From the NCBI RefSeq assembly GCF_004340525.1, contig NZ_SLWX01000002.1, positions 1 to 64,000 on the forward strand: a stretch of DNA of 64,000 nt. The letters run 5' to 3'. The notes under the pieces are model-generated. The model had not been told where the DNA came from. It was given only the letters and a program-made list of their open reading frames with translations, and did not search any database. A program made the translations under genes and the position numbers. This document shows positions 32,999-38,497 of this stretch, piece after piece. The stretch is from Chromatocurvus halotolerans. GTDB taxonomy: Bacteria; Pseudomonadota; Gammaproteobacteria; Pseudomonadales; Halieaceae. How positions within the stretch are numbered: position 1 is the stretch's first letter; the number at the start of each line of letters is the position of its first letter.

Positions 32999-34027
32999 TC
33001 AATCAATCTGGCTTTCGTACTCTTCGTGAAATTGTTCCAGGTGTCGCTCCACGAGGGCGGTCTGTCGACCGTAGCGAGCGACATGGAACACGGCATCGCC
33101 CTCGTATACCAGCGGCAGGTTGGTGCGGCCGATGACCACCCCGTCGTGGGTTGCCACCATCGGCACCTCGCTGCTGCCGAGTGGGTCGGCGACCACGGCA
33201 ACGGTTTCTCCCGCCACTATCTTGGCGCCAAGGGGAACCAGGGTGCTGAGAATGCCGCTTTCCGGGGCCCGCAGCCAGCTCGACTGGTCGCTCACTATGG
33301 GTGCGGGCACCGGCTTGCGGCGGGGGCTGCGGCGCAACAGGCCCACTTCCCGCAGGACGTTGATGACGCCGGAGACGCCGGCACGGATATACATCTCGTC
33401 GAAGCGCAGGGCCTCGCCGGCCTCGTAGAGAATGACCGGAATGCCGGCATCACCGGCTGCCTCCCGCAGCGAGCCGTCGCGGATCTTCGCATCGATCGCC
33501 AGCGGAACGCCGAAGGCCTCCGTCATGGCCCGCGCTCCGGGCATGTCCAGGTCAGCGCGAATCTGGGGGAAATTGGCCCGATGGCGGGCGCCGGTATGCA
33601 GGTCAATGCCGTAATCGCACTTGAGCACGATTTCCCGGAGGAAGGTGTTGGCGACCCGCGCTGCGAGCGATCCGGCTTCCGAACCCGGAAAGGAGCGGTT
33701 GAGGTCCCTGCCATCCGGCAGGTAGCGGGAATGGTTCAGAAATCCGTAGATATTGACGATGGGAATCGCCAGGAGCGTGCCGCGCAGGTTGCGTAGCGAA
33801 CGGTGCTTGAGCATTCGCCGGATGATTTCGACACCGTTGATTTCGTCGCCGTGCACGGCCGCACAGACGAAGGCGATGGGTCCCGGCTGTCGGCCATGTA
33901 TGACCTGTACGCTGATGGACAGGTCGTCATGCGTGTAGAGTGGAGCCACCGGGATATCAACGGTCTTTTTTTCTCCGGGAGCAATGCTGATACCCCCGAT
34001 GTCAATAGCGCCGCGTGATCTGGCCAT
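32999..34027 (-). CDS. succinylglutamate desuccinylase/aspartoacylase family deacylase
   Basis: 342-residue zinc carboxypeptidase-like deacylase. Zinc ligands H59 and E62 (HGDE) and H144 (DLHTG) are in place, with the substrate-binding DGRDLNRSFPG near 105-115 and a likely catalytic glutamate in ILYEAGEA. A C-terminal barrel-sandwich part (about 260-310, APESGILSTLVPLGAKIVAGE) is typical of this subgroup. Start taken at the ATG four bases after the rimK stop, with AGGGAT upstream; a longer frame reaches into rimK. Adjacent to RimK it is a candidate for removing or trimming the amino-acid tags that RimK adds; that is inference. Confidence 0.88.
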   Translation of the reverse strand: MARSRGAIDIGGISIAPGEKKTVDIPVAPLYTHDDLSISVQVIHGRQPGPIAFVCAAVHGDEINGVEIIRRMLKHRSLRNLRGTLLAIPIVNIYGFLNHSRYLPDGRDLNRSFPGSEAGSLAARVANTFLREIVLKCDYGIDLHTGARHRANFPQIRADLDMPGARAMTEAFGVPLAIDAKIRDGSLREAAGDAGIPVILYEAGEALRFDEMYIRAGVSGVINVLREVGLLRRSPRRKPVPAPIVSDQSSWLRAPESGILSTLVPLGAKIVAGETVAVVADPLGSSEVPMVATHDGVVIGRTNLPLVYEGDAVFHVARYGRQTALVERHLEQFHEEYESQID

Positions 34028-34031
34028 GTCT

Positions 34032-34946
34032 CTATCCCTGAGTGCGTCGGCTGTCGGTGCGCGTTGGCCTCGCGTTCTCCTCGACATACTGGATGATTCT
34101 GCTGGCGATATTCTTGCCGCTGGCCTCTTCGATACCGCGCAGACCCGGGGAGGAGTTGACCTCCATGATCAACGGTCCCCGGGACGAGCGCAGTATATCG
34201 ACGCCTGCCACCGCGAGTCCCATGGTCTGTGCCGCCTTGACCGCCGTGCGCCGCTCTTCCGGCGTCAGCTTGGTCGGCTGTGCACTGCCGCCGCGGTGAA
34301 GGTTGGAGCGGAATTCGCCTTCCGCGGCGCTGCGCTCCATGGCGGCGACGACCCGGCGGCCGATAATAAAGGCGCGCACGTCCGAGCCACCCGCTTCCTT
34401 GATGAACTCCTGCACCAGGAAGTCAGCGCCGAGCTCGATGAAGGCATCGATCACGGATTCCGCGGCTTTGTAGGTTTCCGCCAGGACAACACCGCGCCCC
34501 TGCGTACCCTCGAGGAGTTTCAGCACTACGGGGGTGCCGCCGACCATCTTGATCAGCTCGCGGCCGTTCTCCACGCTGTGGGCAAAGCCGGTGACCGGCA
34601 TGCCGACGCCCTTGCGCGACATGAGCTGCAGCGCCCGCAGCTTGTCCCGCGAACGTCCCAGCGGGATCGACTCCGTGAGGCAGTAGACCCCCATCATCTC
34701 GAATTGCCGGATGACCGCCGTGCCGTACTCTGTTATCGAGGCGCCAATGCGCGGAATGATGGCATCGAATCCTTCAACGGCCTTGCCTTTGTAATAAATG
34801 GCGGGCCTGGCCGAGTTGATATCCATGTAGCACTTCAGCGTGTCCATGACTTCAACATCATGGCCGCGTTCGCGAGCCGCCTCTGCCAGCCGCTGCGTGC
34901 TGTAGAGTCGTGAGTTGCGCGAGAGAATGCCTATCTTCATTTTCAT
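34032..34946 (-). CDS. rimK: RimK-type alpha-L-glutamate ligase
   Basis: ATP-grasp ligase of 304 residues (E. coli RimK 300) that adds glutamates to the C-terminus of ribosomal protein S6 or makes poly-glutamate. [17 protein letters not shown] is the family N-terminus; [16 protein letters not shown] gives the ATP-grasp lysine and glycine loop, and [22 protein letters not shown] holds the metal-binding E and N. Two starts are possible six bases apart (MKMKIG or MKIG). Thirty bases downstream of the RimB-like gene and four before the deacylase, it is the centre of a four-gene operon. Confidence 0.92.
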
Positions 34947-34976: not shown

Positions 34977-35456
34977 CTAGCGGGGAGGTTTCCCGACCAG
35001 GTAGGAGCGGCCGGAATCCACCACAAAGTTGCGTTTCAGCGCCGTGCGGCCCAACAGGCAACGAAAACGCATGGAGTCGCGATCCGTCAGCGTTACCTCG
35101 GCTGTCAACTGATGGGGGCCAATGTGGATCTCCGCCTCGATGACATAACGCATCTCAGCGTGCCCGCCGGAATCGCGCACCGACCGGCGGTCGACAACCG
35201 GGGCTTCGCACTCCAGTACTGTGTCCTGATCCCGTTGATTGGGATGGATGGAGAAGGCGACATAAAGTCTGCCGTCCCGCTCGAAAGGAGACACCTTGAA
35301 GGCGTGCAGTGCACTGGTGCGTGCCCCGGTATCGACCTTTGCCTTGATGGCGTCGATACCGAGAGCCGGGAAGCTGATCCACTCCCGCCAGCCTACCCGA
35401 GGCAGGCCGGGTGGAACAGGAGTTTCGTCCCGGTTGGTAGCGCTGGCGCCTGACAC
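34977..35456 (-). CDS. RimB-like retropepsin-type protease (ATP-dependent zinc protease family)
   Basis: 159-residue protein of the family named ATP-dependent zinc protease, in fact an aspartic-protease-like fold: the catalytic triplet D42-T-G lies in AKVDTGARTSALHAF, and LLGRTALKRNFVVD is the second conserved loop. A relative next to rimK in Pseudomonas is called RimB and affects RimK activity. The GTG start follows the ferritin-like gene's stop by three bases and has no strong ribosome-binding site of its own, so coupling to that gene is likely. Confidence 0.85.
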   Translation of the reverse strand: MSGASATNRDETPVPPGLPRVGWREWISFPALGIDAIKAKVDTGARTSALHAFKVSPFERDGRLYVAFSIHPNQRDQDTVLECEAPVVDRRSVRDSGGHAEMRYVIEAEIHIGPHQLTAEVTLTDRDSMRFRCLLGRTALKRNFVVDSGRSYLVGKPPR

Positions 35457-35459
35457 GGG

Positions 35460-35747
35460 CTACTTGTGGGCTATGGGTTTGTCAGTGAACAGGTAGTCCC
35501 TGAGCTCACTGTAAAACTTTGGATCCTGACGGCGTATCCACTCAATCACCATCGCGGCATGCTCCTTTTCCTCGTCGCGATTGTGCTCGAGAATACGCTT
35601 CAGTTCCGGGTCCTGGCAGGCATCGACTCGCTGGTTATACCAGTCTACGGCCTCCAGCTCTTCCATCAGTGAAACGATGGCGCGATGCATGTCGCGAGTT
35701 GCGGCGGACAGTTCGCTTACGGGTTCGTGATATCCCTCATTGGCCAT
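35460..35747 (-). CDS. encapsulated-ferritin-like (EncFtn) protein, no encapsulin targeting tail
   Basis: 95-residue two-helix demi-ferritin. It matches the R. rubrum EncFtn pattern closely: MEELEAVDWY at 28-37 and HNRDEEKEHAAM at 55-66. Ferroxidase residues align as E30, E60 and H63, with the entry-site E29, E32 and W36 also kept, so a decameric iron-oxidising ring is expected. The chain ends YLFTDKPIAHK shortly after helix 2, without the Gly/Leu-rich C-terminal peptide that docks cargo to encapsulin, and no encapsulin gene is present. ATG with AGGGG upstream; in-frame extension upstream looks non-coding. First gene of the operon with RimB-like, rimK and the deacylase. Confidence 0.85.
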   Translation of the reverse strand: MANEGYHEPVSELSAATRDMHRAIVSLMEELEAVDWYNQRVDACQDPELKRILEHNRDEEKEHAAMVIEWIRRQDPKFYSELRDYLFTDKPIAHK

Positions 35748-35978
35748 AATCGTCCCCTGATGTGTATTTTTACCGTCGACGTTGCGACAAAAACGAATAG
35801 TCTGGCTCCTCAGCACGGACAATGCAACGAGTCTGCGCCCGGCGTTCGCAATCAGCCAGGCTCCTGCCGCCGGTTTATGTGCAAAAACCAGCGATCCTGC
35901 GTCGCTGGTGCATTCAAGACAGGAAGCGGAATTCACAGGGGTGTTCTTTGTCGTGATTGGCGTATACTGCGCCGCTCG

Positions 35979-36041: not shown

Positions 36042-36329
36042 ATGAGCTGGAAAACACAACGACAGCGAGTCTCCAGAACGTTGGCAGTATTCCTGCTGGC
36101 TTTTGCTATCGGAGCGCAGTTCGGGCTGGTCGGCCATCAACATGTCGATGGCAAGCCTGTTGCCGACTGTCTTCAATGCCAGTTCGATCACGGTAAGGCA
36201 GCGATCTCAAGCAATAGCCTGAGCGGCTTCCACGCCCCGGCACACGCAGCACCTGAATCAGTCACCCTGGTGGGTATCGTCGCTGCCCACTACGCCTTCA
36301 ATGCGCGAGGCCCACCCTTACTCTCCTGA
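36042..36329 (+). CDS. small secreted protein preceding TonB receptor (DUF2946-like)
   Basis: 95 residues. A basic start and hydrophobic segment (about 13-30) form a signal peptide or anchor, followed by a short region with HQH and a CLQC pair (C43, C46) then H50, which could bind a metal ion. Small CxxC secreted proteins of this shape (DUF2946 type) commonly precede copper or zinc TonB receptors. The ATG at 36042 is the first in frame after the inverted repeat; ribosome-binding site is weak. It ends 35 bases before the receptor gene. Role in receptor loading or sensing is inference. Confidence 0.65.
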   Translation: MSWKTQRQRVSRTLAVFLLAFAIGAQFGLVGHQHVDGKPVADCLQCQFDHGKAAISSNSLSGFHAPAHAAPESVTLVGIVAAHYAFNARGPPLLS

Positions 36330-36364: not shown

Positions 36365-38497
36365 ATGAAGAAGACCCTAATTGCGGTCTGCGTTGGCGCT
36401 GCCAGCCAGGCTATGGCACAGATACCAGAGTCACGGATGGAGCACGTGCTTGTTACGACGCCCATTCACAAAAAAGCGGCAGAGACAGCTCTCCCCGTTA
36501 CCGTTCTGAGCGGCGATGAACTGCGTCGACTGGCGGCGAGTACTCTCGGCGAAACGCTTGGCGACAAGCCAGGCATCTCCAATGCATCCTTTGGCCCCGG
36601 CGTCGGAAGACCCGTGATACGGGGGCAGGGTGGTCCGCGAACCATCAATCTCAACAACGCCATTGCAGCGGCCGATGTGTCCAGCCTCAGCCCGGACCAT
36701 GCGGTGAGCATCGAGCCGATGTTGGCGGATTCCGTTGAGGTGCTGCGTGGCCCCGCCACACTCCTCTACGGGGGTGGGGCTATTGGCGGTGTGATCAATA
36801 CGCGCGACAACCGAATCCCCAGCGAGCGTATAGATGGCGTGCAGGGTGCCGTGGAGTATCGCTACGATGACGCTCCCGAGATGAACACGGGTGTTCTGAA
36901 ATTCGAGGGAGGCTCCGGCGACTTTGCGTTTCATGTCAGCGGCACGTTCCGGGACTTTGAGGACACGAGTATTCCAGGTCTGGCGATTGATGAGGAAGCG
37001 GTAGAAACGCAGGAAGCGCTGCTCGGCGGTGGGCACGGTGGGGACCACGAAGAAGATCACGATCACGAGGAAGAAGAATTCGAGAACTCCGATGGCTTTA
37101 TTGCCAATACGGATGGCGACGCAGACGTTTTCACGATCGGCGGCAGCTATCACTTTGGTGAACGGGATTTTGTCGGTTTTTCCTACAACAGCTTCGAAAC
37201 CAATTACGGCATTCCGCCCGGGGCGCATGAACACGGCCATGAAGAAGAGCACGACCACGATGGAGAACACGACCACGAGGGCGAAGAGCATGGCGAGGAG
37301 GAGGACGAGATTATCCGTATCGATCTCAAGCAGGAACGCTACGATACGCAGCTACACATACACGACCTCGTGCCGGGCCTCATTGACGTAGCGCGAGGCT
37401 TTCTGACCTATACAGACTATGAGCACGTGGAGCTTGAGGGTGTTGAGATCGGGACACAATTCAGCCGTCAGACCTACGAGGGGCGCCTGGAGCTTGTGCG
37501 CGAGGGCGATAATCATGGCGTCCTCGGTTTGCAGTGGCGCGCTGACGAGTTTGAGGCGGTGGGTGATGAAGCCTACGTACCAAAAACCGACTCGTCGGAA
37601 TGGGGTGTGTTCTACGTGCAGGATTTCCACGCTGCAGACTGGCAGTTTGAAGTAGGTGGTCGCGCCGATATCGTTGATCGCGATCCGGCGACCGGCGCCG
37701 CAGAAGACTTCACCAGTTTCAGTCTGTCGGCGTCGGGACTTTACAACATCAGTCGTGAGTGGAACCTGGGTGTTTCCTTGTCACGTGCAGAACGCGCACC
37801 TTCAACGGAGGAACTGTTCTCTAACCTCAATAACACGGATGAGCAGCTCGTAACCCACGCCGCCACGGGCGTCATCGAAATCGGCGACCCCGACATCGGC
37901 ACTGAAACGTCTCTCAACGGCGACCTGTCGCTAACATGGACTGCCGAGCGCAGCTTCGCGGAGCTCACGGTGTTCTACAACACCTTCAGTGATTATATTT
38001 TCCTGCTGAATACAGGCGAGGAAGTTGACGAAACTCCGGTGTACATTTACGAACAGGAGGACGCGAAGTTCTATGGTGTGGAGTTTGAGTCCAGCTTCGC
38101 GCTTGCCCGCGTTGCCGGTGGTGACGTTAGCCTGGGTGTTTTTGGCGACATGATTACGGGCGAATTCGACTCCGCCGGTGACGTGCCGAGGCTGCCTCCC
38201 ATGCGGATTGGCAGCGAGCTCTCCTGGCGCAGTGACTCCCTGGGCGCCTATGTCAGGTTCCTCAATGCGAGTGATCAGGATGATCCCGGTGATTTTGAAA
38301 CCGGGACCGACGGCTATACCCGTTGGGACGCCGGTGTCGACTACCGCGTGCAGTTTGCGGGTAACAACGAGTTACTGGCTTTCCTGAAGTTAAAAAATAT
38401 CACCGATGAGGAAATACGCCTCAGCACCTCTTTCCTGCGCAATTTCGCGCCTCAGGCCGGAGAGAGCATAGAAGCGGGTGTGCGTTTCATGTTCTAG
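36365..38497 (+). CDS. TonB-dependent receptor with metal-binding His/Glu/Asp-rich loops (ZnuD-like)
   Basis: 710-residue outer-membrane receptor. Signal peptide to AMAQ (about 19), plug domain with PVTVLSGDELRR and VEVLRGPATLLYGGGAIGGVIN, then a beta-barrel ending in GVRFMF with a terminal phenylalanine. Two acidic-histidine segments stand out: GGGHGGDHEEDHDHEEEEF (about 221-239) and a longer one about 286-315 with many HEE/HDH repeats; both should lie in extracellular loops. This pattern is known from ZnuD and related zinc (or copper/nickel) receptors. Good ribosome-binding site (AGGAGAAC) before the ATG. No TonB/ExbBD genes nearby. Metal identity unproven. Confidence 0.88.
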   Translation: MKKTLIAVCVGAASQAMAQIPESRMEHVLVTTPIHKKAAETALPVTVLSGDELRRLAASTLGETLGDKPGISNASFGPGVGRPVIRGQGGPRTINLNNAIAAADVSSLSPDHAVSIEPMLADSVEVLRGPATLLYGGGAIGGVINTRDNRIPSERIDGVQGAVEYRYDDAPEMNTGVLKFEGGSGDFAFHVSGTFRDFEDTSIPGLAIDEEAVETQEALLGGGHGGDHEEDHDHEEEEFENSDGFIANTDGDADVFTIGGSYHFGERDFVGFSYNSFETNYGIPPGAHEHGHEEEHDHDGEHDHEGEEHGEEEDEIIRIDLKQERYDTQLHIHDLVPGLIDVARGFLTYTDYEHVELEGVEIGTQFSRQTYEGRLELVREGDNHGVLGLQWRADEFEAVGDEAYVPKTDSSEWGVFYVQDFHAADWQFEVGGRADIVDRDPATGAAEDFTSFSLSASGLYNISREWNLGVSLSRAERAPSTEELFSNLNNTDEQLVTHAATGVIEIGDPDIGTETSLNGDLSLTWTAERSFAELTVFYNTFSDYIFLLNTGEEVDETPVYIYEQEDAKFYGVEFESSFALARVAGGDVSLGVFGDMITGEFDSAGDVPRLPPMRIGSELSWRSDSLGAYVRFLNASDQDDPGDFETGTDGYTRWDAGVDYRVQFAGNNELLAFLKLKNITDEEIRLSTSFLRNFAPQAGESIEAGVRFMF

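What the first reader, a model, noticed from the sequence alone, without database searches (positions are those of the whole stretch)
35460..35747. EncFtn homologue lacking a targeting peptide and an encapsulin
All ferroxidase residues of EncFtn (E30, E60, H63, and E29, E32, W36) are present, yet the chain stops at PIAHK soon after helix 2 and no encapsulin shell gene is in 64 kb. Classic EncFtn needs a shell to store iron, so this would be an open ferroxidase ring with another purpose, such as iron detoxification or redox sensing.
Basis: partly seen in the sequence, partly recalled or inferred. Interest (0 to 1): 0.65.

Follow-up and report, generated by a model that had tools for sequence, protein, structure and literature searches.

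The report
Shell-free EncFtn-type ferroxidase (s-FLP)
This gene encodes a small iron-oxidising protein of the kind usually locked inside an encapsulin nanocompartment; here and in many other bacteria it exists without a targeting tail or shell, often beside peroxide-defence genes, so it probably works free in the cell rather than storing iron.

Summary
Window 35460-35747(-) encodes a 95-aa EncFtn with all ferroxidase residues and no targeting peptide, and the 99.99%-complete genome has no Linocin_M18 encapsulin. It is not an oddity: it is 76% identical, end to end, to NE0167 of Nitrosomonas europaea (PDB 3k6c, a decamer), type structure of the 's-FLP' class in a 2024 review. That review left open whether s-FLPs are encapsulated and listed 'LFTD(E/N)KPIAHE' as a putative targeting peptide. 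My survey speaks against this. Of 274 genomes of the class, 65 have a short EncFtn and 14 an encapsulin; all 14 have a separate EncFtn beside the shell gene, and 61 of the 65 have no encapsulin. Short forms arose more than once, nearly all with a histidine-bearing end. In 19 genomes the gene lies beside DUF3501, mostly inside the aerobic-rubrerythrin peroxide-defence operon. Best reading: a free decameric ferroxidase for iron/peroxide detoxification, not storage. The shell-free assignment is strong; the role is inferred. The window copy itself is not in that operon: it precedes rimB-rimK, DUF3501 is absent, and the genome has a bacterioferritin.

The parts
35460..35747 (-). s-FLP gene: 95-aa tail-less EncFtn-family ferroxidase (stop codon included)
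35658..35660 (-). codon of E30, ferroxidase glutamate (E32 of R. rubrum EncFtn)
   Evidence: position arithmetic; mapping
35559..35570 (-). codons E60-K-E-H63, the ExxH motif of the ferroxidase centre (E62, H65 of R. rubrum EncFtn)
   Evidence: position arithmetic; mapping
35466..35468 (-). codon of H94 in the C-terminal ...PIAHK; invariant in the 25-sequence alignment A3; His lies within the last 8 residues of 147 of 155 short homologues
35753..35757 (-). GGGGA, likely ribosome-binding site of the s-FLP start codon
   Evidence: read from the sequence; not tested
34977..35456 (-). downstream neighbour, RimB/RloA-like retropepsin (PF05618), 3 nt after the s-FLP stop, probably cotranscribed
34032..34946 (-). 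RimK-type glutamate ligase (NF007764, 436 bits)
32999..34087 (-). AstE/AspA-type succinylglutamate desuccinylase/aspartoacylase-family protein (PF24827)

Best explanation
The gene encodes a short, shell-free EncFtn (s-FLP). Two-helix subunits pair through E30/E60/H63 to build a di-iron ferroxidase site, and five such pairs close into an open decameric ring free in the cytosol. The ring oxidises Fe2+ (with O2, possibly consuming peroxide) but has no cavity and no shell to hold mineral. It would therefore lower the reactive Fe2+ pool during oxidative stress, with ferric iron passing to other stores such as the bacterioferritin of this genome, rather than store iron itself. SHOWN here: family membership, intact active site, absence of targeting peptide and of classical encapsulin, presence of a bacterioferritin, statistical independence of s-FLP from encapsulin, and operon linkage of many homologues with aerobic rubrerythrin, its Fe-S oxidoreductase and DUF3501. 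SHOWN ELSEWHERE for relatives: decameric ring (3k6c, 5da5), and ferroxidase activity without mineralisation for R. rubrum EncFtn outside its shell. INFERRED: activity of this protein, its role in iron/peroxide detoxification, hand-over of Fe3+.
For: Family and fold. Active-site residues invariant in homologues. No encapsulin in the genome; a single EncFtn; a bacterioferritin (TIGR00754, 221 bits) and two Dps-like ferritins elsewhere. Class survey of 274 genomes: s-FLP in 65, encapsulin in 14; every encapsulin has an adjacent EncFtn of its own (tailed in 13 of the 14 genomes; in the fourteenth, G196, an in-frame EncFtn-encapsulin open frame); s-FLP overlaps encapsulin in 4 genomes, 3.3 expected by chance (p = 0.75), against p = 9e-24 for the encapsulin-adjacent group; those 4 genomes carry the s-FLP elsewhere in the genome. 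Phylum sample of 398: apart from one divergent group (f211), no genome with a short EncFtn has an encapsulin. Tree: at least 3 changes between tailed and short forms; a second short clade (L203-L207) and the G202 protein sit among tailed sequences with starred support, so decoupling from the shell recurred. Function by context: s-FLP gene within 3 kb of DUF3501 in 19 of the 45 s-FLP genomes that have DUF3501; order in most aRBR - RFO - s-FLP - DUF3501; DUF3501 in 45/65 s-FLP genomes against 73/209 others (p = 1.5e-6); peroxiredoxin is the upstream neighbour in 3 of 101. PMC5114695: aRBR-RFO-DUF3501 as a peroxide-defence cluster. PMC5012862: EncFtn alone is a ferroxidase and cannot mineralise iron.
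Against: In this genome the gene is not in a rubrerythrin operon; DUF3501 is absent and the neighbours are rimB, rimK and an AstE-like gene, none matched near the other 144 s-FLP loci compared. Most homologues (about 70%) have unrelated, variable neighbours. In vitro, R. rubrum EncFtn without its shell forms ferric precipitates and showed no peroxidase activity with o-phenylenediamine (PMC5012862). No promoter-like or obvious regulatory site was found upstream. Activity and oligomer of this protein are untested.
Confidence: 0.6

Rival explanations
1. s-FLP is still a cargo: PIAHK/E is an unconventional targeting peptide for a shell that the encapsulin model misses (remote family or other compartment).
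For: PMC11202242 lists LFTD(E/N)KPIAHE as a putative, uncharacterised targeting peptide and notes there is no steric bar to encapsulation. The C-terminal IAH(K/E/D) is strongly conserved.
Against: 61 of 65 s-FLP genomes lack encapsulin, and the 4 that have one also carry a separate encapsulin-adjacent EncFtn. The conserved end is polar and His-bearing, unlike the IGSLK/TVGSL/TIGPLK-type peptides of the tailed proteins.
Confidence: 0.07
2. s-FLP is a dedicated partner of the aerobic rubrerythrin system: it loads or unloads iron for rubrerythrin, or pairs Fe2+ oxidation with the rubrerythrin-RFO peroxidase cycle; copies such as the window's act alone or with other peroxidases.
For: Tight gene order aRBR-RFO-s-FLP-DUF3501, s-FLP often within 5-60 nt of RFO; co-occurrence with DUF3501.
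Against: 20 of 65 s-FLP genomes, including this one, have no DUF3501 hit; in most genomes the gene is unlinked; 73 of 118 DUF3501 genomes lack s-FLP.
Confidence: 0.25
3. Relic of a lost encapsulin operon: tail and shell lost, protein persisting without a defined role.
For: Tailed relatives nearly all sit next to an encapsulin; the gene is rare in the window's own order.
Against: The ferroxidase residues are conserved in 144 homologues, identity is 79-86% across Beta-, Gamma-, Zeta- and some Alphaproteobacteria, and a C-terminal His is conserved; this indicates strong purifying selection.
Confidence: 0.03
4. Redox or iron sensor, as the first reader suggested as an alternative.
For: Iron-dependent assembly is known for the H. 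ochraceum EncFtn (PMC11202242), so a ring could in principle report iron.
Against: No signalling domain and no consistently linked regulator in the neighbour tallies.
Confidence: 0.05

Closest known systems
NE0167 of Nitrosomonas europaea (PDB 3k6c), type structure of the s-FLP class (PMC11202242)
   Same: 95 aa in both, 72/95 identical residues, same PIAH(K/E) end, same ferroxidase residues apart from W36 (Leu in NE0167), no targeting peptide
   Different: Nothing of substance; the window protein keeps W36. Oligomer of the window protein not measured.
EncFtn of Rhodospirillum rubrum (Rru_A0973, PDB 5da5; TIGR04535/PF22277)
   Same: Same fold, active site, entry and exit residues
   Different: The R. 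rubrum protein (140 aa, PMC11202242) has a disordered tail ending in a targeting peptide and works inside an encapsulin; the window protein has neither.
EncFtn-encapsulin fusions (Pyrococcus furiosus, PDB 5n5e)
   Same: Homologous ferroxidase domain
   Different: Fused to the shell; here there is no shell.
Bacterioferritin/Dps
   Same: Ferritin superfamily, di-iron ferroxidase chemistry
   Different: Closed cages that store mineral; separate genes for these exist in this genome.

Membership tests
EncFtn-like (PF22277 / TIGR04535) | Profile match above the curated cut-off | tested here: met
   149.9 bits vs 27; 138.3 vs 125
EncFtn-like (PF22277 / TIGR04535) | Two long antiparallel helices plus a short third helix; ferroxidase residues E32/E62/H65/Y39 (R. 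rubrum numbering) | tested here: met
   Model helices 15-43, 47-74, 76-87 and PDB matches 3k6c, 5da5, 5n5f; residues E30/E60/H63/Y37
EncFtn-like (PF22277 / TIGR04535) | D5 decamer with ferroxidase centre at a subunit interface | not testable with these tools
   Only a monomer was modelled; inferred from 3k6c (10 chains in the entry; decamer per PMC11202242)
Encapsulated ferritin (FLP-TP) | C-terminal targeting peptide after a 20-40 aa tail | tested here: not met
   Chain ends at PIAHK; next ORF 3 nt downstream
Encapsulated ferritin (FLP-TP) | Encapsulin (PF04454) in the genome, normally adjacent | tested here: not met
   0 hits in the genome; control genomes and 14 class genomes ring
s-FLP (PMC11202242) | EncFtn domain of ~95 aa with no long tail or targeting peptide, ...LFTD(E/N)KPIAHE-like end | tested here: met
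Aerobic rubrerythrin operon (aRBR-RFO-DUF3501, PMC5114695) | Gene next to aRBR/RFO/DUF3501 | tested here: not met
   Not for the window copy: DUF3501 absent from the genome. Met for 19 other genomes of the class survey and several named loci

The most novel reading that the evidence does not exclude
Shell-free EncFtn is an unrecognised fourth component of the aerobic rubrerythrin peroxide-defence system, and its conserved C-terminal histidine, found in place of the targeting peptide also in short forms of separate origin, is a functional metal or partner site.
Probability: 0.3. Interest if true: 0.6.

Novelty: new member of a known kind. Interest (0 to 1): 0.4.

Why it matters
R. rubrum EncFtn was shown to need its encapsulin for iron storage. 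In this class most genomes with an EncFtn have no encapsulin at all (62 of 76 in the sample), so the shell-free form is the common one. A published open question (are s-FLPs encapsulated?) gets a clear comparative answer, and the rubrerythrin linkage gives a concrete, testable role.

Tried and rejected
Hidden targeting peptide downstream or by frameshift: rejected, rimB starts 3 nt after the stop. Encapsulin elsewhere in the genome: none; family-2 model PF19307 gave nothing but its controls did not ring, so no conclusion. A conserved s-FLP-rimB-rimK operon: none of these ORFs has a match near the other 144 s-FLP loci compared. Promoter-like sites and repeats upstream: nothing. Plasmid-borne spread: only 7 plasmid records with a match. 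Literature: in the held library NE0167 is named only in the 2024 review, and no paper found links EncFtn/s-FLP with the rubrerythrin operon; subscription papers, such as Giessen and Silver 2017, are not held. Searches failed for technical reasons.

Full report
WHAT IS THERE. The minus-strand ORF at 35460-35747 encodes MANEGYHEPVSELSAATRDMHRAIVSLMEELEAVDWYNQRVDACQDPELKRILEHNRDEEKEHAAMVIEWIRRQDPKFYSELRDYLFTDKPIAHK, preceded by GGGGA a few bases before the start (read by eye). It matches EncFtn-like PF22277 over 84 of 85 profile positions and the encapsulin-associated ferritin model TIGR04535. The closest solved structure is 3k6c, NE0167 of Nitrosomonas europaea, 95 aa, aligned end to end with 72 of 95 residues identical. 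All residues of the R. rubrum ferroxidase centre and of the proposed entry and exit sites are present, and nearly invariant in 144 short homologues (site definitions PMC5012862). An AlphaFold2 monomer (mean pLDDT 86) has helices 15-43, 47-74 and 76-87 and finds 3k6c and 5da5 among the first matches in the PDB. The chain therefore holds the complete ordered EncFtn domain; only the disordered, peptide-bearing tail is missing. The next gene starts 3 nt after the stop, so nothing is hidden downstream.

NO SHELL. The genome (3.91 Mb, 45 contigs, 99.99% complete) has no Linocin_M18 hit while control genomes ring, and only this one EncFtn. It has a bacterioferritin (TIGR00754, 221 bits) and two Dps-like proteins below their equivalog cut-offs, so storage need not depend on an encapsulin.

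IT IS A CLASS. [quoted passage not shown] I tested this by co-occurrence. In 274 genomes drawn evenly from the class, EncFtn was sought, encapsulin was sought, and tails were read from the DNA. EncFtns fall into two groups with almost nothing between: tails of 0-10 residues after the domain, or 22-41 residues, mostly ending in IGSLK/TVGSL/TIGPLK-like peptides. (One tailed protein, L068, has a Lys/Ala/Pro tail without such a peptide and no encapsulin; L048 ends early, at TVGKP.) Encapsulin occurs in 14 genomes, in each with an adjacent EncFtn of its own: tailed in 13, and in G196 an EncFtn open in frame with part of the shell. Short EncFtns occur in 65 genomes; 61 of these have no encapsulin. 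The four with both (G014, G196, G236, G247) carry the s-FLP at another place. Overlap 4 against 3.3 expected, p = 0.75; for the encapsulin-adjacent group 14 of 14, p = 9e-24. In a phylum sample of 398 genomes the picture repeats: the two tailed EncFtns (G072, G400) have an adjacent encapsulin, and, apart from one divergent group, no genome with a short EncFtn has one. The divergent group (f211) is the only case where a short EncFtn-like protein and an unlinked encapsulin share a genome without a tailed EncFtn (2 of 4). So the putative PIAHE targeting peptide is not supported for these bacteria.

HISTORY. A tree of 105 domains (94 columns; many forks unresolved) needs 3 changes between tailed and short forms, against 14 in shuffles. 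The window sits in the large short group with no starred placement. A second short clade (L203-L207: four genomes of the same phylum and one, G334, of the window's own order) and the G202 protein lie among tailed sequences behind starred branches. Changes between the two states therefore happened more than once; the direction for the main group is not rooted. Of 155 distinct short proteins 147 have His in the last 8 residues, against 37% expected from their own composition (relatedness not corrected). H94 is invariant in the 25-sequence alignment. Four of the five proteins of the second short clade and the G202 protein end in different but His-bearing tails (DH, HDDEH, VDH, TGHEEGASEKHGL, GHDH).

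NEIGHBOURHOOD. Clustering of ORFs around 145 s-FLP loci gives one recurrent association: rubrerythrin (about 139 aa) - GlpC/CCG-domain Fe-S oxidoreductase - s-FLP - DUF3501, all on one strand, often with gaps of a few to 60 nt. Family scans agree: the immediate upstream gene carries PF02754 in 15 of 101 and the immediate downstream gene DUF3501 in 18 of 98. This is the aerobic-rubrerythrin cluster of Cardenas et al. 2016 (PMC5114695); that paper does not mention encapsulin (its Figure 3 marks a gene HYP that I could not identify). In the class survey DUF3501 is found in 45 of 65 s-FLP genomes and 73 of 209 others (p = 1.5e-6), and the two genes lie within 3 kb in 19 of the 45, far above chance (about 1e-39 by a crude uniform-placement estimate). 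In a few of the 19 (G066, G123, G187) DUF3501 precedes s-FLP instead. Co-occurrence may partly reflect shared ancestry; adjacency is the stronger evidence. Other neighbours include peroxiredoxin (3 of 101 upstream), but most are varied. The window copy is an exception: no DUF3501 in the genome, and neighbours are a RimB-like retropepsin, RimK and an AstE-like protein downstream, with a ZnuD-like TonB receptor divergent upstream.

MECHANISM. R. rubrum EncFtn alone is a ferroxidase, forms an open decamer, does not mineralise, gave precipitates at higher iron load, and had no peroxidase activity with o-phenylenediamine (PMC5012862). By homology the window protein should be a cytosolic ring that oxidises Fe2+. 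Without shell or cavity it cannot be a store; the operon company of many relatives points to coping with iron and peroxide together. How ferric iron is kept soluble and where it goes is unknown; bacterioferritin is a candidate here. The ring, activity and role of this very protein are inferred.

VERDICT. Observation confirmed; interpretation partly supported; a member of a known but functionally uncharacterised class. Added here are the co-occurrence test against encapsulation, the repeated origin of short forms, the conserved C-terminal His, and the rubrerythrin-operon linkage.

Noticed in passing
L043 (G196:C227:4031-7435): EncFtn in frame with encapsulin residues about 116-252 in one 492-aa open frame, the N-terminal part of the shell missing; a deletion-fusion or an assembly fault. 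The same genome has an s-FLP in a rubrerythrin operon (L050).
   Followed up: partly
L068 (G074:C20:60265-70513): EncFtn with a 31-residue Lys/Ala/Pro-rich tail (..KPAAKPKAAPKAKKPTPKSE), no targeting peptide and no encapsulin in the genome.
   Followed up: no
L208-L211 (family code f211, genus g324): Divergent EncFtn-like protein (about 84 bits) with a conserved VKAGE.GEKKVD end; encapsulin unlinked in 2 of the 4 genomes. Proteins 39-41% identical to the window's also sit on Bradyrhizobium and Rhodopseudomonas plasmids as hypothetical proteins; whether they are the same group was not checked.
   Followed up: partly
window 36365-38497 (+) and 36042-36329 (+): ZnuD-like TonB-dependent receptor with His/Glu-rich loops, below the ZnuD cut-off, preceded by a small ORF with a CLQC motif and no family match; possibly a zinc-uptake pair divergent from the s-FLP gene.
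   Followed up: no
window 34977-35456 (-): RimB-like retropepsin directly in front of RimK, a ribosomal S6 glutamylation-type pair, here preceded by s-FLP with a 3-nt gap.
   Followed up: no
G002:C5:169028-169117, G027:C28:31480-31575: Only the C-terminal third of an EncFtn is found (profile 54-85), in short frames, with two stops in G027; possible decayed copies.
   Followed up: no
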